NCBI RefSeq assembly: GCF_016937535.1
Contig: NZ_JAFHKK010000001.1
Span: forward strand, 124,001 to 188,000
DNA: 64,000 nucleotides
Direction of reading: 5' to 3'
DNA from: Sulfurospirillum tamanense
Lineage (GTDB): Bacteria; Campylobacterota; Campylobacteria; Campylobacterales; Campylobacteraceae
Shown: positions 4,766 through 22,406 of the stretch, piece by piece
Numbering within the stretch: position 1 is the first letter of the stretch
Layout of the letters: every line of letters starts with the position of its first letter
The notes under the pieces: model-generated
Seen by the model: the letters and a program-made list of their open reading frames with translations, nothing else
Told to the model about the DNA's origin: nothing
Databases searched by the model: none
Made by a program: the position numbers and the translations under genes

Positions 4766-5083
4766 CTACCGAAACTTCCACCCCTCACCCTCAAGTGCCG
4801 CTTTAACTTTGGTTTGCACGTCCCCTTGCAGGGCTATCCACTCCTCTTCCCATGTGCCACCGCAGGCGAGTTTCTTTTTTAAAAAGCGTAAGAGCTCTTT
4901 TTCAGCCTCTTCCTCAAGGGCAAACCTACCCACTAAGGTCACAGGCTTGCCCTTGCGCCGCTCAAAGCGAAAGACAAGTTGGTGGGCTTTTTGAGGCTTT
5001 GCATCCTCTTTGGCTCCCGCCTTTTCTTCTTTACCCTGAAGGGCCAAAGAGAGCTCTTCAAGTTTTGCACCCATTTCAAACAT
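4766..5083 (-). CDS. SUI1/YciH-family (eIF1-like) protein
   Basis: 105 residues. The C-terminal two thirds carry the eIF1/SUI1 fold pattern: KPVTLVGRF, FLKKKLACGGT, then IALQGDVQTKVKAALEGEGW, which corresponds to the KKCGCGGA...IEIQGD pattern of bacterial YciH. Such proteins bind the small ribosomal subunit; the bacterial role is not well defined. The N-terminal 35 residues are charged and probably flexible. The start codon overlaps the stop of the 30-residue membrane peptide gene upstream (TAATG), so translation of the two is probably coupled. Confidence 0.85.
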   Translation of the reverse strand: MFEMGAKLEELSLALQGKEEKAGAKEDAKPQKAHQLVFRFERRKGKPVTLVGRFALEEEAEKELLRFLKKKLACGGTWEEEWIALQGDVQTKVKAALEGEGWKFR

Positions 5084-5175
5084 TACTTGCGCCGACAGCT
5101 AGCGATGCCTAAAATCGCCCACATGCCCAATCCAAGGGCTACCATCACGCCTAAAAAATAGATTACTGCTTGCAT
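5083..5175 (-). CDS. 30-residue single-span membrane peptide
   Basis: The reading frame MQAVIYFLGVMVALGLGMWA continues to end in ...SCRRK, one hydrophobic helix with a positive C-terminal end. It has a proper ribosome-binding site (GGAG, 6 bases before the ATG) and its TAA stop overlaps the ATG of the SUI1-like gene. No family is recognised. The hydrophobicity, ribosome-binding site and coupling make it a likely real small protein. Confidence 0.6.
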   Translation of the reverse strand: MQAVIYFLGVMVALGLGMWAILGIASCRRK

Positions 5176-5267
5176 TGTTTACTCCGTAATATTTTTGTAA
5201 TTGTAGCGTGTTTAGGCTTTTACTAAAGGTCATTTGGATATAGTTTAAACAAAAAAAGGAAGCACTG

Positions 5268-5801
5268 ATGCGAATTTTTTGGTGGCTTTTGCTGCCTTTG
5301 CTAGCTTGGGGTTTTGAGGGAACATTAGTGCAAATTGTTGATGGCGACACCGTTGTGCTTAAAGACGCTAAAGGGAGCCAAACCATCTGTCAACTTGGTT
5401 TTTTGGACGCTCCTGAAGACCGCGCCAACGACCGCCTTGTGGCGCAAGCGACCCGCTGCAATTTACCCCAATCTTCTCTCAAGCAGGCAGGCCAAGAAGC
5501 CACTGCCTTCATCAAAGCGACGCTTGTGTTGGGCGAAACCTATACCTACGAGCTTCTTTCCCCTAAAAATAACAGCTGGGCACACTGCCTTATCCACATC
5601 CCCAAAGCCGCCCACGCCCAGCTGCACCCCACCATCAATGGCGTCATGCTTGACCAAGGCTTTGGTGCTTTTTTTCCGCTTGGCAAGCAGTCCCCCCATG
5701 CCAATGAAATGGAAAAATTTGCCAAAGCTGCCCACAAAGAGGTACGTGGCCTTTGGAAAACCCACCCGCGCATCATGGAGTGTCTTTCACCCATCCCCTA
5801 G
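5268..5801 (+). CDS. Secreted staphylococcal-nuclease-like (SNase/TNase) protein, probably catalytically altered
   Basis: 177 residues with a signal peptide (MRIFWWLLLPLLAWGF) followed by one SNase-type domain: VQIVDGDTVVL, LGFLDAPE and the late VMLDQGFGAFF...EVRGLW block. The Asp of IVDGDT and the Glu of DAPE are kept. The arginine that normally precedes the xxxDxPE motif (Arg35 of staphylococcal nuclease) is replaced by Gln (CQLGFLDAPE), and the second catalytic Arg (position 87 in the reference) also appears absent (NNSWAHCLIHI). It is preceded by a good ribosome-binding site (AAGGAAG). A periplasmic nucleic-acid-binding role is as plausible as nuclease activity. Confidence 0.75.
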   Translation: MRIFWWLLLPLLAWGFEGTLVQIVDGDTVVLKDAKGSQTICQLGFLDAPEDRANDRLVAQATRCNLPQSSLKQAGQEATAFIKATLVLGETYTYELLSPKNNSWAHCLIHIPKAAHAQLHPTINGVMLDQGFGAFFPLGKQSPHANEMEKFAKAAHKEVRGLWKTHPRIMECLSPIP

Positions 5802-5830
5802 GGATTGCTTACATGTAACCACTTTTAAAG

Positions 5831-5836
5831 TACAAT
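5831..5836 (+). promoter_or_regulatory. -10 box of the AstE-like/rimB/rimK operon
   Basis: TACAAT in the context AAAGTACAATTAGCG, 29 bases before the GTG start at 5865. It lies shortly after a TTACATGTAA copy at 5809-5818. Confidence 0.5.
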
Positions 5837-5864
5837 TAGCGTAATTTTTTTTGAAGGAACATAC

Positions 5865-6917
5865 GTGGCTTCGGCACTTATCATTGGCGACATTCCCATT
5901 CACGAAGGGGAAGAAAAACAGCTTTCTCTCCCCTTGCCAAACCTGTACAACACGCCCGCATTTTTGCCCTTACATGTAAAGCGTGGGCGCAAAAAAGGTC
6001 CCACGGTTTTCATCAGTTCGTGCATCCACGGCAATGAAATCAATGGCATCGAAATCATCCGCCGTTTATTGGAAGTCTCCTTGCTCAAACGCTTGCGCGG
6101 CACCCTTATCTTGGCACCTGTTGTCAACCCTTATGGGTTTAACAGCCTCTCGCGCTACTTGCCCGACCGTCGTGACCTCAACCGCTGTTTTCCAGGCTCC
6201 TCCACAGGCTCTCTTGCCTCACGGGTTGCCAAAACCTTTTTTGATGAAGTAGTGCTTAAAAGCGATTTTGGCATCGACCTTCACACGGCGGCTTTACACC
6301 GTTCCAACCTGCCTCAAACCCGCGTAGCATACGAAGATAGCGCTCTTTTGGAGTTTGCCAAAGCCTTTGAAGCCCCCGTCATTTTAAATGCTCCTTACCG
6401 CGAGGGAAGTTTGCGCTATTGCGCCCACAAAGCGGGCATTCCCGTGTTGCTTTACGAAGCGGGCGAAGCACTTAGGGTCGATGAATCTTCCGTGCGTATC
6501 GGGGTAAATGGCATTGTCCAAGTCCTTAAAAAACTAGGCATGCTTCCCCAAAAAGAGTCCCAAAAAAAGCGACGCAAAAACCCCCTTTACACCCAATCAA
6601 GCAACTGGGTACGCGCTAGTGAGAGTGGCATTATGCGCGCGCTAAAAAACCTTGGGGACACGGTGAGCAAAGACGAAGTCATCGCCCTCATCGAGAAACC
6701 TTTGTCCACTGCTCCAAGCTTTGTCCGCGCACCCCACAATGGCATCATCATCGGACGCACGGAGATTCCTTTGGTACAAGAAGGGGACGCACTCTTTCAC
6801 GTGGCAGCCTTTGAAAACCTCGAAAAAGCAGAAGAGCGCATCGAGTATTTCCAAGACGCCGCCATCAGTCAAAACGACTTTTTGGAACTAAAGGATCAAC
6901 ATGTCATCTCCGAATAA
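5865..6917 (+). CDS. Succinylglutamate desuccinylase/aspartoacylase-family zinc amidohydrolase with C-terminal biotinyl-like domain
   Basis: 350 residues from a GTG with the ribosome-binding site GAAGGA. The M14-type zinc-site motifs are SCIHGNEINGIEI (His and Glu ligands), RDLNRCFPG (Arg/Asn substrate binding) and GIDLHTA (third ligand region). The C-terminal 90 residues form a barrel-like sandwich-hybrid domain (SGIMRALKNLGDTVSKDEV). It overlaps the RimB-like gene by 17 bases and leads the RimK operon. The substrate is probably an acylated or glutamylated amino acid or peptide; a role opposing RimK glutamylation is inference from position only. Confidence 0.8.
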   Translation: MASALIIGDIPIHEGEEKQLSLPLPNLYNTPAFLPLHVKRGRKKGPTVFISSCIHGNEINGIEIIRRLLEVSLLKRLRGTLILAPVVNPYGFNSLSRYLPDRRDLNRCFPGSSTGSLASRVAKTFFDEVVLKSDFGIDLHTAALHRSNLPQTRVAYEDSALLEFAKAFEAPVILNAPYREGSLRYCAHKAGIPVLLYEAGEALRVDESSVRIGVNGIVQVLKKLGMLPQKESQKKRRKNPLYTQSSNWVRASESGIMRALKNLGDTVSKDEVIALIEKPLSTAPSFVRAPHNGIIIGRTEIPLVQEGDALFHVAAFENLEKAEERIEYFQDAAISQNDFLELKDQHVISE

Positions 6918-19882: not shown

Positions 19883-19898
19883 TTCCCCTCTTCTTTAT

Positions 19899-19996
19899 GG
19901 AGGGTATCTGACCCTGGTGGGCAGCACGGGCTTCAAACCCGATGTCTGGGCGGTTGACCGTTTGGAGGCAGGTTCGATTCCTGCACCTTCTCGCCA
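19899..19996 (+). tRNA. selC: Selenocysteine tRNA (anticodon TCA)
   Basis: About 98 nt, long as expected for tRNA-Sec. The anticodon loop CTTCAAA carries UCA, flanked by CGGG/CCCG. The extended variable arm is centred on GGGCGGTTGACCGTTT, the T arm is GCAGG-TTCGATT-CCTGC, and the 3' end is encoded GCCA. The acceptor stem (GGAGGGT/ACCTTCT) has G-U pairs. It supplies Sec for the two UGA-containing formate dehydrogenase genes and is the left border of an AT-rich acquired block. Confidence 0.93.
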
Positions 19997-20250
19997 TTAC
20001 ATACTCAATAAACTCCAATAGTGTCTAGAAATCCGCCAATCCAAGCTATACCTTAAATATTTCAGTCCAACTGAGCCCAATAAGACTTGTTAAAATCCAG
20101 AATTTCATGCTTCACGTTGTTAATGCTGCATTTTTTTGTTTGCCCTCCGCTCATGCCTCTGAGCTCTTCTTGTCCATTCCTAAAAAATATTGGGATGCTA
20201 GGCTAATTAATATTCGCTTCGATTCAAATTTGTAGAACAATATCTTTTAC
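19997..20250. other. AT-rich non-coding stretch after tRNA-Sec
   Basis: No convincing gene, ribosome-binding site or tRNA-Sec 3' end repeat was seen here. Base composition drops sharply relative to the left side, consistent with acquired DNA inserted beside the tRNA. Confidence 0.5.
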
Positions 20251-20318
20251 GTATAATATTTAAAATGAGCCAATGAATTGTCCGCAGGGTAATTTATTGG
20301 CTCCACTGATTTGTTATC
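20251..20318 (-). repeat. attC-like imperfect inverted repeat A
   Basis: Read on the minus strand it starts GATAACAAATCAGTGGAGCC just after the stop of the 134-residue gene, continues with AATAAATTACCCTGCGG and returns through ATTGGCTCATTTT. The arms GAGCCAAT/ATTGGCTC are inverted. Repeat B at 20805-20870 is nearly the same, which fits a pair of cassette recombination sites. Confidence 0.55.
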
Positions 20319-20321
20319 TAG

Positions 20322-20726
20322 CTAGTTGATTTCTCTTAACATACTCAAACCTTTTTCTATCTCAACAATTAAATTTGTTTTCATACCTAACCAATCATGA
20401 TTATATACCCCATCAATTTTCGGAGAACTTGACAATTCATGTTCATAAGTTAGTTGTACTTGCTGTTGTTTCGATTTTTTCATTAAAAATTTATCATCTA
20501 ACATTTTTTGAGTTACTTTTATTCCAGAAGCTTCATTTTCTTCAATAAACGAGTAAAATTCATTTGTATCAGTGTAGTTTCTTTCCCAACCAGAACGTCC
20601 AATTATAAAAGCTGTTGCCAAAGATGCATACTCCTCTTTAGATAACGAGTTTATATAATTTTTCATCTCATTTGATGACACTTGTAATGTTTGAATATTA
20701 TTAAAAATATTTTCTATCGGTTTCAT
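20322..20726 (-). CDS. Uncharacterised 134-residue cassette-borne protein
   Basis: It starts at the ATG at 20726 with the ribosome-binding site AAAGG. The protein (MKPIENIFNNIQTLQVSSNE...) is mostly helical and soluble, with SLATAFIIGRSGWERNYTD as its most distinct block and a Lys/Gln-rich middle. No family was firmly recognised (a DUF3775-like resemblance is possible). It has no promoter of its own in the short gap and is bracketed by attC-like repeats, as for an integron cassette gene. Codon use is AT-rich compared with the flanks. Confidence 0.6.
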   Translation of the reverse strand: MKPIENIFNNIQTLQVSSNEMKNYINSLSKEEYASLATAFIIGRSGWERNYTDTNEFYSFIEENEASGIKVTQKMLDDKFLMKKSKQQQVQLTYEHELSSSPKIDGVYNHDWLGMKTNLIVEIEKGLSMLREIN

Positions 20727-20748
20727 TTTTTTCCTTTGTTGTAATATA

Positions 20749-20785
20749 GATAACAAGCGGGTGTTCAGCCCGCGCCACCGTTATC
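20749..20785 (-). repeat. Short attC-like hairpin
   Basis: The ends GATAAC and GTTATC enclose GCGGG/CCCGC arms. It sits directly upstream of the 134-residue gene and is joined through a second palindrome (GTTATCTCGGA/TCCGAGATAAC, 20780-20810) to repeat B. The repeated GTTATC/GATAAC ends resemble the core sites of integron attC elements. Confidence 0.45.
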
Positions 20786-20804
20786 TCGGATGCGTAGCGT
20801 CCGA

Positions 20805-20870
20805 GATAACGTTTGAATTGAGCCAATAAATTTCCCGCAGGGTAATTTATTGGCTCCACTGATTTGTTAT
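20805..20870 (-). repeat. attC-like imperfect inverted repeat B
   Basis: On the minus strand it begins ATAACAAATCAGTGGAGCC two bases after the Abi-alpha-like stop, turns at ACCCTGCGGG and returns ATTGGCTCAATTCAAACGTTATC. About 60 of its bases match repeat A. Complementary ends with unpaired extra bases and a GTTATC end are typical of attC sites. Confidence 0.55.
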
Positions 20871-20872
20871 AT

Positions 20873-21589
20873 TTATTTGATACAAGCGATAACAAATTTT
20901 ACACCTAAAGAAGTGAGATTTAAGCTATCATAACCTTTATCAATGGTTGCACTTTCTCCTCCTATATTCATGTGACTCATTACTTTTACTTCTGAACAAA
21001 CACAACGCACACGCATTAAATTATCTATAGAATCTTCGTAGTCATATTCTGATATCTTTAATACATTCATGATATTATTTTTAGAAAATGATATTCTTCT
21101 TGGTGATTCTTTTTGAATATTGTCTTGCCCAACTGCATTAACATACCCATCGAACATTGCATTTAAAATTTTTACATCTATAACTTCAAGTTGTTTGATA
21201 ATATCAATAAATGCAGAGCGAACTTCACTTGAAGAGTTTTTCCCTTGTGCAGAAGACATTAATTTTGCCCAAAGGTCTTGTAGTAAATCATCTTCTTCTA
21301 AAGAAGCATTTTCAATAATTGGAATAGCAAGTTTTGGAGATACTGGAATTTCTTTTCCGTTAATACCTCGTTCGTGGTTTATTTTTTCTACTTGTTCTAT
21401 TAAGCGAACTTGTCTTTCCCATCGCATAAATTTTAACTTATCTCCTAAAATACCTGCTGCAGTCTCAATCGGTTCTCCAAGAACCTTGGCAAAAAAACCT
21501 CCAACTTTTTCACTTACTTCTAAACCTTTATGAGCTGTTTTTGCTATTTCTTGTGTTGCTTTTGCTGTTTCAACAATTTCTTCATTCAC
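20873..21589 (-). CDS. Abi-alpha/DUF4393-like protein, possible phage-defence gene
   Basis: 238 residues from GTG with the ribosome-binding site AAGGAA. The central region (FMRWERQVRLIEQVEKINHE, then VSPKLAIPIIENASLEEDDL and LQDLWAKLMSSA) matches the Abi-alpha (DUF4393) family, linked to abortive infection. The N-terminus is amphipathic, with a possible glycine-rich membrane-associating segment. It is AT-rich and cassette-like, with an attC-like repeat right behind its stop. A defence role is inference from the family and context. Confidence 0.65.
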   Translation of the reverse strand: MNEEIVETAKATQEIAKTAHKGLEVSEKVGGFFAKVLGEPIETAAGILGDKLKFMRWERQVRLIEQVEKINHERGINGKEIPVSPKLAIPIIENASLEEDDLLQDLWAKLMSSAQGKNSSSEVRSAFIDIIKQLEVIDVKILNAMFDGYVNAVGQDNIQKESPRRISFSKNNIMNVLKISEYDYEDSIDNLMRVRCVCSEVKVMSHMNIGGESATIDKGYDSLNLTSLGVKFVIACIK

Positions 21590-21893
21590 AATTGTTCCTT
21601 AAAATATAACTATTTATTCAACAAACATTATATACAAAACGGTCTGATACGCCCGAATAAATGGACATAAAAAGTGTTGGTTTATTTGATAAAATATTTC
21701 ACAATGCAATATTTTTACTAGTTTTTTATCAAATCCATTAAAATCTTTAAAATTTCAATGACCGTTTAAAAATATTTTTGGCGTTATTTGAACATGTTAT
21801 CGTTTAATTGGTGGAAAAAAGTATTAAATGGCCATTGTGTCGTTTAATCTTTTCTCGCTGTTGTTTTTTGGACTTCACCGTAACGCACCACCC
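21590..21893. other. AT-rich intergenic region before the YgjP-like gene end
   Basis: No gene is supported here. It should hold the promoter of the Abi-alpha-like gene; AT-rich -10-like words (TATAAC, TATATAC) occur near 21605-21632 on either strand but none stands out. No integrase gene is present in this gap. Confidence 0.4.
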
Positions 21894-22406
21894 TCAAATC
21901 CCCTCTTTTTTCTCCACTGCTCGCACTACCAACCAGACGCGAAAGTCAAATTCCACTTGGTGATAAGAGGGCAAAAGATGGGCGCAAAACTGGTAAAAGG
22001 CTTTGTCGTGCTCTTTGGACTTAAAGTGCGCCAACTCGTGCACCACAATCATCTCCAAAAATGCTTCGGGCGCGTGTTTAAACACTGAAGCGATGTACAC
22101 CTCGTTTTTGGCTTTGAGCTTTCCCCCTTGGACGCGCGAAACAAAACGGTGGATGCCTAGAGCGTTTTTCACCACGTCGATTTTGGTGTCATAGACGACT
22201 TTACTTAAGGGTGGAAATTTTTTAAGATGCCGTTGTTTTAGCGCATTGACGTAGCCAAACAAGGCTTTGTCATCTTTCACGCTATGGTGCGTTGGGTACT
22301 TTCCCTGCACATACTCACCCAACGTGCCCGCTTCAAGGCGTTGGCGCACGCTTTCTTGAAGGTGAGAGGGATAATGCCCAAGAAAGCGCGATAAAAGAGC
22401 TTCCAT
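21894..22406 (-). CDS. YgjP/WSS1-like M48-type metallopeptidase domain protein
   Basis: 170 residues. The zinc motif HELAH with a downstream histidine is in VVHELAHFKSKEHDKAFYQF, followed by LLPSYHQ, the arrangement of the YgjP/SprT-like peptidase family. Its cellular target is unknown. It lies one base downstream of the sensor kinase gene, so it may be the last gene of the copper two-component operon. Confidence 0.8.
   Translation of the reverse strand: MEALLSRFLGHYPSHLQESVRQRLEAGTLGEYVQGKYPTHHSVKDDKALFGYVNALKQRHLKKFPPLSKVVYDTKIDVVKNALGIHRFVSRVQGGKLKAKNEVYIASVFKHAPEAFLEMIVVHELAHFKSKEHDKAFYQFCAHLLPSYHQVEFDFRVWLVVRAVEKKEGI

What the first reader, a model, noticed from the sequence alone, without database searches (positions are those of the whole stretch)
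19899..21589. Integron-like gene cassettes beside tRNA-Sec, including an Abi-alpha-type gene
Two AT-rich genes in one orientation are each followed by a near-identical imperfect inverted repeat with GATAAC/GTTATC ends, plus a third shorter hairpin. This matches cassette-plus-attC structure. The cassettes stand next to selC, a common insertion point, and the block lacks TTACATGTAA. No integrase is present, so the cassettes may be stranded or moved in trans. One product resembles an abortive-infection protein; the other is unknown.
Basis: partly seen in the sequence, partly recalled or inferred. Interest (0 to 1): 0.6.

Follow-up and report, generated by a model that had tools for sequence, protein, structure and literature searches.

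The report
Decayed integron with phage-defence cassette
Beside a selenocysteine-tRNA gene sits a broken integron (a bacterial gene-capture platform): it kept its docking site, two captured genes (one resembling a phage-defence gene) and a scrap of a widespread gene-free structured cassette, but lost the enzyme that moves them.

Summary
A covariance model trained only on attC sites beside integron integrases of other Campylobacteria scores the two repeats 85.4 bits (E 4.5e-17) and 64.3 bits (E 3.7e-12); they are the only attC sites in this genome.

Homology stops about 15 nt before the intI start codon, and the genome has no intI. So this is a complete integron that lost intI, not cassettes stranded by off-target insertion. 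(2) Cassette 1 encodes an Abi_alpha protein (PF14337); cassette 2 an orphan protein. (3) The third hairpin is a 56-bp remnant of a widespread gene-less cassette of about 150 bp: 61 copies examined, 55 starting exactly at attI or attC, with a covarying fold. I found no published description of it. (4) attI without intI recurs elsewhere; at one orthologous locus, seven genomes each carry a different cassette.

selC as target is unsupported: there is no tRNA-end duplication, and other remnants are not at tRNAs. Function and mobility are inferred, not tested.

The parts
19898..19992 (+). tRNA-Sec gene (selC); neighbour, not shown to be an insertion target
   Evidence: ARAGORN; Rfam RF01852; no duplicated 3' end
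20251..20319 (-). attC site of cassette 2 (distal); R' box decayed to ATTATAC
   Evidence: covariance model R1 64.3 bits, E 3.7e-12; fold z -3.0
20257..20753 (-). gene cassette 2, bounded by G|TT-type crossover points
   Evidence: sequence; compared with other arrays
20322..20726 (-). cassette 2 gene, orphan protein of 134 aa (144 aa from the first TTG)
   Evidence: no Pfam/NCBIfam/PADLOC family; 48.6% identical homologue on an Agarilytica plasmid; absent from 371 other genomes of the class
20754..20809 (-).
   Evidence: first 53-54 nt identical to the full-length element in L070/L083; family model R2 31.9 bits
20804..20872 (-). attC site of cassette 1
   Evidence: covariance model R1 85.4 bits, E 4.5e-17; 95% identical over 65 nt to an attC in an intI-adjacent array, L041; fold z -5.9
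20810..21609 (-). gene cassette 1
   Evidence: crossover points at attI (21610|21609) and in attC1 (20810|20809), read from sequence and alignment
20873..21589 (-). cassette 1 gene, Abi_alpha family protein (238 aa, GTG start)
   Evidence: PF14337 94.2 bits, cut-off 29; PADLOC PDC-S47, E 1.6e-14
21610..21680 (-). attI site and cassette promoter region; -10-like TATAAT at 21627-21632 (-)
   Evidence: conserved in the alignment of 11 attI loci; promoter activity inferred from sequence only
21610..21853 (+). attI-to-intI leader, kept up to about 15 nt before the missing intI start codon
   Evidence: 83.5% identical over 243 nt to L050, 78% to L045/L029, 75% to L039, in all of which intI follows; 29 of 397 genomes carry it
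21853..21894 (.). junction where intI is lost; host-type DNA and the 3' end of a YgjP-like gene follow
   Evidence: alignment; YgjP PF01863 at 21894-22406 (-); no intI in the genome

Best explanation
This is a decayed chromosomal integron. An ordinary Campylobacteria-type integron (intI, divergent leader, attI with the cassette promoter Pc, cassettes) stood here. intI was deleted from just upstream of its ribosome-binding site. What remains is attI/Pc, cassette 1 (Abi_alpha gene plus an intact-looking attC), a 56-bp remnant of a gene-less cassette, and cassette 2 (orphan gene plus an attC with a decayed R' box). Shown by sequence: attC identity, attI/leader identity, absence of intI, the Abi_alpha family, and the origin of the third hairpin. 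Inferred: that Pc still transcribes both genes toward selC as a short operon; that loss of intI froze the array so the defence-type gene is now kept like an ordinary gene; that the cassettes could be excised only by an IntI supplied in trans; and that the Abi_alpha protein acts in phage defence.
For: attC model trained on other genomes: 85.4 and 64.3 bits; the first is as good as the best true attC sites beside integrases. Only two sites in the genome, both here. attI/leader 83.5% identical to an intact integron, with homology ending just before intI. No intI in the genome. A decay series in relatives: intact intI, internally deleted intI (L120), first 28 codons only (L128), leader only (L112, L113, and here), attI only. 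Island-like composition. Both cassette genes are sporadic, in 1/372 and 4/372 genomes. One of those Abi_alpha relatives is itself an attC cassette in another genome (L137).
Against: The sister genome G001 shows neither these attC sites nor the neighbouring genes, so no empty or intact allele of this exact locus was seen and the deletion is inferred from homology. attC2 has lost the GTT of its R' box. No expression, excision or phage data exist. The assembly has 63 contigs, although completeness is given as 100.
Confidence: 0.9

Rival explanations
1. CALIN formed by off-target insertion: an IntI acting in trans put cassettes at a secondary site next to selC, and no integron ever stood here.
For: There are two attC sites with no intI nearby, which is the formal definition of a CALIN.
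Against: An off-target event inserts cassettes, not 240 bp of attI plus the intI leader; that leader is present and abuts cassette 1 at the attI crossover point.
Confidence: 0.03
2. An attI-plus-cassette segment without intI was moved here as a unit and serves as a trans-fed landing site, like the orphan attI locus next to htpG in seven genomes of another family.
For: intI-less attI loci are recurrent: 29/397 genomes carry the leader, and about half of these lack a full intI. At one orthologous locus seven genomes each carry a different cassette exactly at attI while none of them encodes IntI.
Against: The window keeps nearly the whole leader, up to just before the intI start codon, which fits in-place deletion better. 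The distal attC is decayed and no donor IntI is present in this genome.
Confidence: 0.06
3. The repeats are ordinary transcription terminators or mobile palindromes (MITE/REP-like), not attC.
For: They are hairpins behind genes, and hairpins are common in intergenic DNA.
Against: Independent covariance model E 4.5e-17 and 3.7e-12; only two copies per genome; near-identical sites form arrays beside intI in other genomes.
Confidence: 0.01
4. For the third hairpin alone: it is a minimal working cassette or regulatory leader of cassette 2 in its own right, not a deletion remnant.
For: It is bounded by G|TTATC on both sides and folds stably.
Against: Its first 53-54 nt are identical to the 5' third of the full element in L070/L083, and other truncated copies exist, L084 and L088.
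Confidence: 0.15

Closest known systems
Sedentary chromosomal integrons and CALIN elements (IntegronFinder 2.0, PMC9024848; review PMC8618304)
   Same: attC-bearing cassettes in one orientation; two attC sites without intI meets the CALIN definition; loss of intI is a proposed origin of CALINs.
   Different: attI and the intI leader are still present, so the origin by intI loss is visible rather than assumed. The attC sites are of a Campylobacteria type not among the 11 taxon models of PMC8352920.
Gene-less cassettes of Vibrionaceae superintegrons (PMC11014356)
   Same: Cassettes without an ORF inserted between attC/attI and genes, upstream of other cassettes.
   Different: The Vibrio ones are a set of 29 cassettes studied for promoter activity. 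The element here is one conserved, covarying 150-bp structure, often repeated identically in an array and often first at attI.
Abi-alpha of Enterococcus faecalis prophage 6 (ef2833, PMC6356687)
   Same: Same Pfam family (formerly DUF4393, now Abi_alpha).
   Different: Carried as an integron cassette in a Campylobacterales genome, not by a prophage; activity untested here.
CALINs in Xanthomonas, progressive loss of intI (PMC12444791)
   Same: Loss of intI thought to stabilise useful cassettes.
   Different: Different phylum and site; here the attI/leader remains and the locus lies beside selC.

Membership tests
Complete integron | intI gene next to attI | tested here: not met
   best TIGR02249 score 52 bits, cut-off 265; none at the locus
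Complete integron | attI site with intI leader and cassette promoter | tested here: met
   83.5%/78%/75% identity to the region just upstream of intI in L050, L045/L029, L039; promoter activity itself not testable
CALIN (attC cluster lacking integrase) | at least two attC sites, no intI nearby | tested here: met
attC recombination site | R''/R' boxes (AAC ... GTT) around an imperfect stem, matching an attC covariance model | tested here: met
   R1 85.4 and 64.3 bits; note the R' of attC2 is ATT, not GTT, and attC1 is GTTATCT rather than strict GTTRRRY
attC recombination site | recombined by IntI as a folded single strand | not testable with these tools
   needs an excision/conjugation assay
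Abi_alpha (PF14337) abortive-infection proteins | match to the family profile above the curated cut-off | tested here: met
   94.2 bits, cut-off 29, profile 2-196/196
Abi_alpha (PF14337) abortive-infection proteins | stops phage growth by early death of infected cells | not testable with these tools
   known here only for E. faecalis ef2833 (PMC6356687)
Gene-less integron cassette | no conserved ORF, ends at G|TT crossovers, sits in an array | tested here: met
   for the full-length family: longest ORF median 27 aa, max 35; 55/61 copies start exactly at attI (21) or attC (34). The window copy is a 56-bp remnant
Gene-less integron cassette | promoter activity for the next cassette | not testable with these tools
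   a section heading of the Vibrio paper states it cannot be identified in silico
tRNA-targeted genomic island | duplicated tRNA 3' end and a tRNA-site integrase | tested here: not met
   no second copy within 3 mismatches; degenerate translation next to selC matches no Pfam family

The most novel reading that the evidence does not exclude
The third hairpin is a relic of a gene-less cassette family that has spread by itself through Campylobacteria integrons as a structured passenger: a 5' hairpin plus a three-way junction closed by GGGGGCGCGGG/CCCGCGCCCCC. It is copied several times within one array and often takes the first place at attI. In addition, attI sites that have lost intI, like the one here, persist as landing pads that take up new cassettes through an IntI acting in trans.
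Probability: 0.4. Interest if true: 0.7.

Novelty: new variant of a known kind. Interest (0 to 1): 0.52.

Why it matters
It shows, at one locus with attI and leader still in place, how an integron decays into an integrase-less cassette cluster that keeps a defence-type gene. It also uncovers a conserved, covarying gene-less cassette family in Campylobacteria, for which I found no published description in the open-access library searched, and an orthologous attI-without-intI locus whose cassette differs in every genome examined. Both make testable two open questions: what gene-less cassettes do, and whether attI without intI still receives cassettes.

Tried and rejected
Rfam: no family for the block or for the gene-less element. 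A strict RYYYAAC/GTTRRRY scan did not separate real sites from chance; a looser scan found one site in the window and arrays elsewhere. A tRNA-island reading was tested by searching for a duplicated tRNA end and by scanning a degenerate open frame next to selC: neither supported it. YgjP and BON neighbours in relatives did not give a syntenic empty site. Viral contigs held neither cassette gene nor the gene-less element. Structure prediction of the orphan protein from one sequence gave pLDDT 54.7, unusable. attC-like sequence around the Agarilytica homologue was looked at by eye but not shown: model R1 gave no hit there.

Full report
What was checked. The block lies at 19898-21853 of the window, in a Campylobacterales genome of 2.46 Mb in 63 contigs (the order is inferred from named relatives). 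tRNA-Sec is at 19898-19992. Two genes on the - strand (20322-20726 and 20873-21589) are each followed by a 65-nt imperfect inverted repeat; the two copies are 89% identical. They fold far better than shuffled sequence in the first case (z -5.9) and moderately in the second (z -3.0). The repeat is found nowhere else in the genome. GC is 0.32 in the cassettes and 0.25 in the leader, against 0.48 for the window.

Are the repeats attC sites? An integron integrase is absent: the best TIGR02249 score is 52 bits against a cut-off of 265. In the class, 34 of 397 genomes have one over the cut-off. I fetched the DNA beside 20 of those integrases and found arrays of sites with almost the same sequence as the window repeats, for example AAATCAGTGGAGCCAATA...TATTGGCTCATTTCAAAC; the closest, in L041, is 95% identical over 65 nt. 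Twenty-five such sites, none from the window, were aligned and made into a covariance model. In the window it finds 20804-20872 (-) with 85.4 bits, E 4.5e-17, and 20251-20319 (-) with 64.3 bits, E 3.7e-12; the same two places on the other strand follow at 32 and 25 bits, and nothing else. In the whole genome these are again the only sites. The first scores as high as the best of 85 sites in the integrase-adjacent arrays. The attC reading is therefore established at sequence level. The distal site has a decayed R' box (ATTATAC).

attI and the lost integrase. BLAST of the block against integrase loci showed that window 21607-21848 is 83.5% identical over 243 nt to the stretch between the first cassette and intI in L050, and 78% and 75% identical to L045/L029 and L039. 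The alignment shows the shared attI core (GAATAAATAG|TT, crossover at 21610/21609), a conserved TATAAT at 21627-21632, and the whole leader up to TCGTTTAATCTTT. In the relatives the ribosome-binding site and start of intI follow. In the window host-type DNA and the end of a YgjP-like gene follow. The array thus was a complete integron and lost intI, with a breakpoint near 21853. Searching 397 genomes for the leader found it in 29. Twenty of these places were read. They form a decay series: intI broken by an internal deletion (L120), only its first 28 codons (L128), leader but no intI (L112, L113, L114, L116 and the window), shortened leader or attI only (others), with zero to a few attC cassettes. 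None of the 20 lies beside a tRNA, and the tRNA-Sec end is not duplicated in the window, so selC is best taken as a neighbour by chance.

The cassettes. Cassette 1 (20810-21609) encodes a 238-aa Abi_alpha protein (PF14337, 94.2 bits; PADLOC PDC-S47, E 1.6e-14). The family's founding member stops a phage in Enterococcus faecalis by premature lysis (PMC6356687). Relatives are in 3 of 371 other genomes of the class. One of these (L137) is itself followed by an attC (64.8 bits) and is flanked on both sides by a diverged gene-less element. Cassette 2 (20257-20753) encodes an orphan protein; its only relative found is 48.6% identical, on a plasmid of Agarilytica rhodophyticola, and it is absent from 371 other genomes of the class. 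Sporadic distribution fits cassette cargo.

The third hairpin. On the - strand it reads G|TTATCTCGGACGCTACGCATCCGAGATAACGGTGGCGCGGGCTGAACACCCGCTTG|TTATC (20809-20754). Searching the held integron loci and then a genome collection for its core found the same element, full length, in many arrays. In 61 copies examined, 21 start exactly at attI and 34 at the R' box of an attC. It contains no ORF longer than 35 aa and is about 150 bp. Identical copies stand before different genes in one array: three in L035, two in L048, two in L062. Twenty-six distinct copies share a fold (a 14-bp closing stem and two inner arms) with 98.5% of cells paired, 8 pairs and 44 cells changed on both sides (shuffles 5.4 and 10.8; slid controls at most 3 and 11). 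Single copies fold with z -6.6 to -7.3. It occurs in 22 of 397 genomes and 11 of 68 genera of the class, and not in viral contigs. Named hosts are mostly Sulfurimonas and other Campylobacteria; a few contigs binned as other phyla carry the same attI or element sequence and are probably misbinned. Rfam has no such family. The window copy is identical to the L070/L083 copy over its first 53-54 nt and then ends at a G|TTATC, as if two GTTATC sites had recombined. It is a remnant, and a weak match to the family model (31.9 bits).

attI without intI. In seven genomes of one genus of another family (L119, L121, L123, L124, L125, L126, L127) the attI fragment lies at the same place next to htpG, with flanks 78-94% identical over more than 4 kb. 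Each genome has a different gene directly at the attI crossover, and none has an intI over the cut-off. The parsimonious reading is that intI was lost once and cassettes changed afterwards, which needs an IntI acting in trans. Repeated replacement of the locus by homologous recombination, or several separate losses, is not excluded.

How it probably works. Inferred steps: the promoter beside attI reads both cassette genes toward selC; loss of intI stops cassettes being reordered or excised, so the Abi_alpha gene is kept stably; attC1 and attI could still recombine if an IntI arrived, while attC2 is doubtful. None of this was tested.

Literature. [quoted passage not shown] CALINs and loss of intI are known (PMC8618304, PMC9024848, PMC12444791). 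Campylobacterota are on the list of integron phyla (PMC8618304) but are not among the taxon attC models of PMC8352920. In the library searched I found no description of the conserved gene-less element or of the orphan attI locus; most subscription papers and preprints are not in that library.

Verdict. The locus itself is a member of a known kind; the gene-less element and the possibly trans-fed attI locus make it a new variant worth following.

Noticed in passing
window, 32 sites (e.g. 2126, 29923, 61998): The palindrome TTACATGTAA occurs 32 times in 64 kb against 0.04 expected. In another family it also forms the hairpin behind htpG...CCTTACATGTAA... (L119-L127), so it may be an uptake-signal or terminator-linked motif.
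   Followed up: partly
L119, L121, L123, L124, L125, L126, L127 (about position 5000-6500 of each): An orthologous attI site without intI next to htpG carries a different cassette in each of seven genomes.
   Followed up: partly
L137:1-1200: Abi_alpha cassette flanked on both sides by a diverged gene-less element (GTTGTACG..CGTACAACGGCGCGGCTGAGCAC ... GTGCTCAGCCGCGCCGTTA), suggesting that the architecture outlasts the sequence.
   Followed up: partly
L093:1-180: A 110-bp, nearly perfectly palindromic version of the gene-less element, directly at attI.
   Followed up: no
L062, L064, L068, L080, L091: Contigs binned as Gracilibacteria or Peptostreptococcaceae carry Campylobacteria-type attC/attI or the gene-less element; one element is identical to a Sulfurimonas copy, so misbinning is likely.
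   Followed up: no
window 19993-20250: AT-rich 258-bp stretch between tRNA-Sec and the last attC, full of stops; no Pfam match.
   Followed up: partly
L132:3180-4530 (Agarilytica rhodophyticola plasmid pSU2): The only relative of the cassette-2 protein sits among small genes with attC-like AAC...GTT repeats seen by eye; not confirmed by the Campylobacteria attC model.
   Followed up: partly
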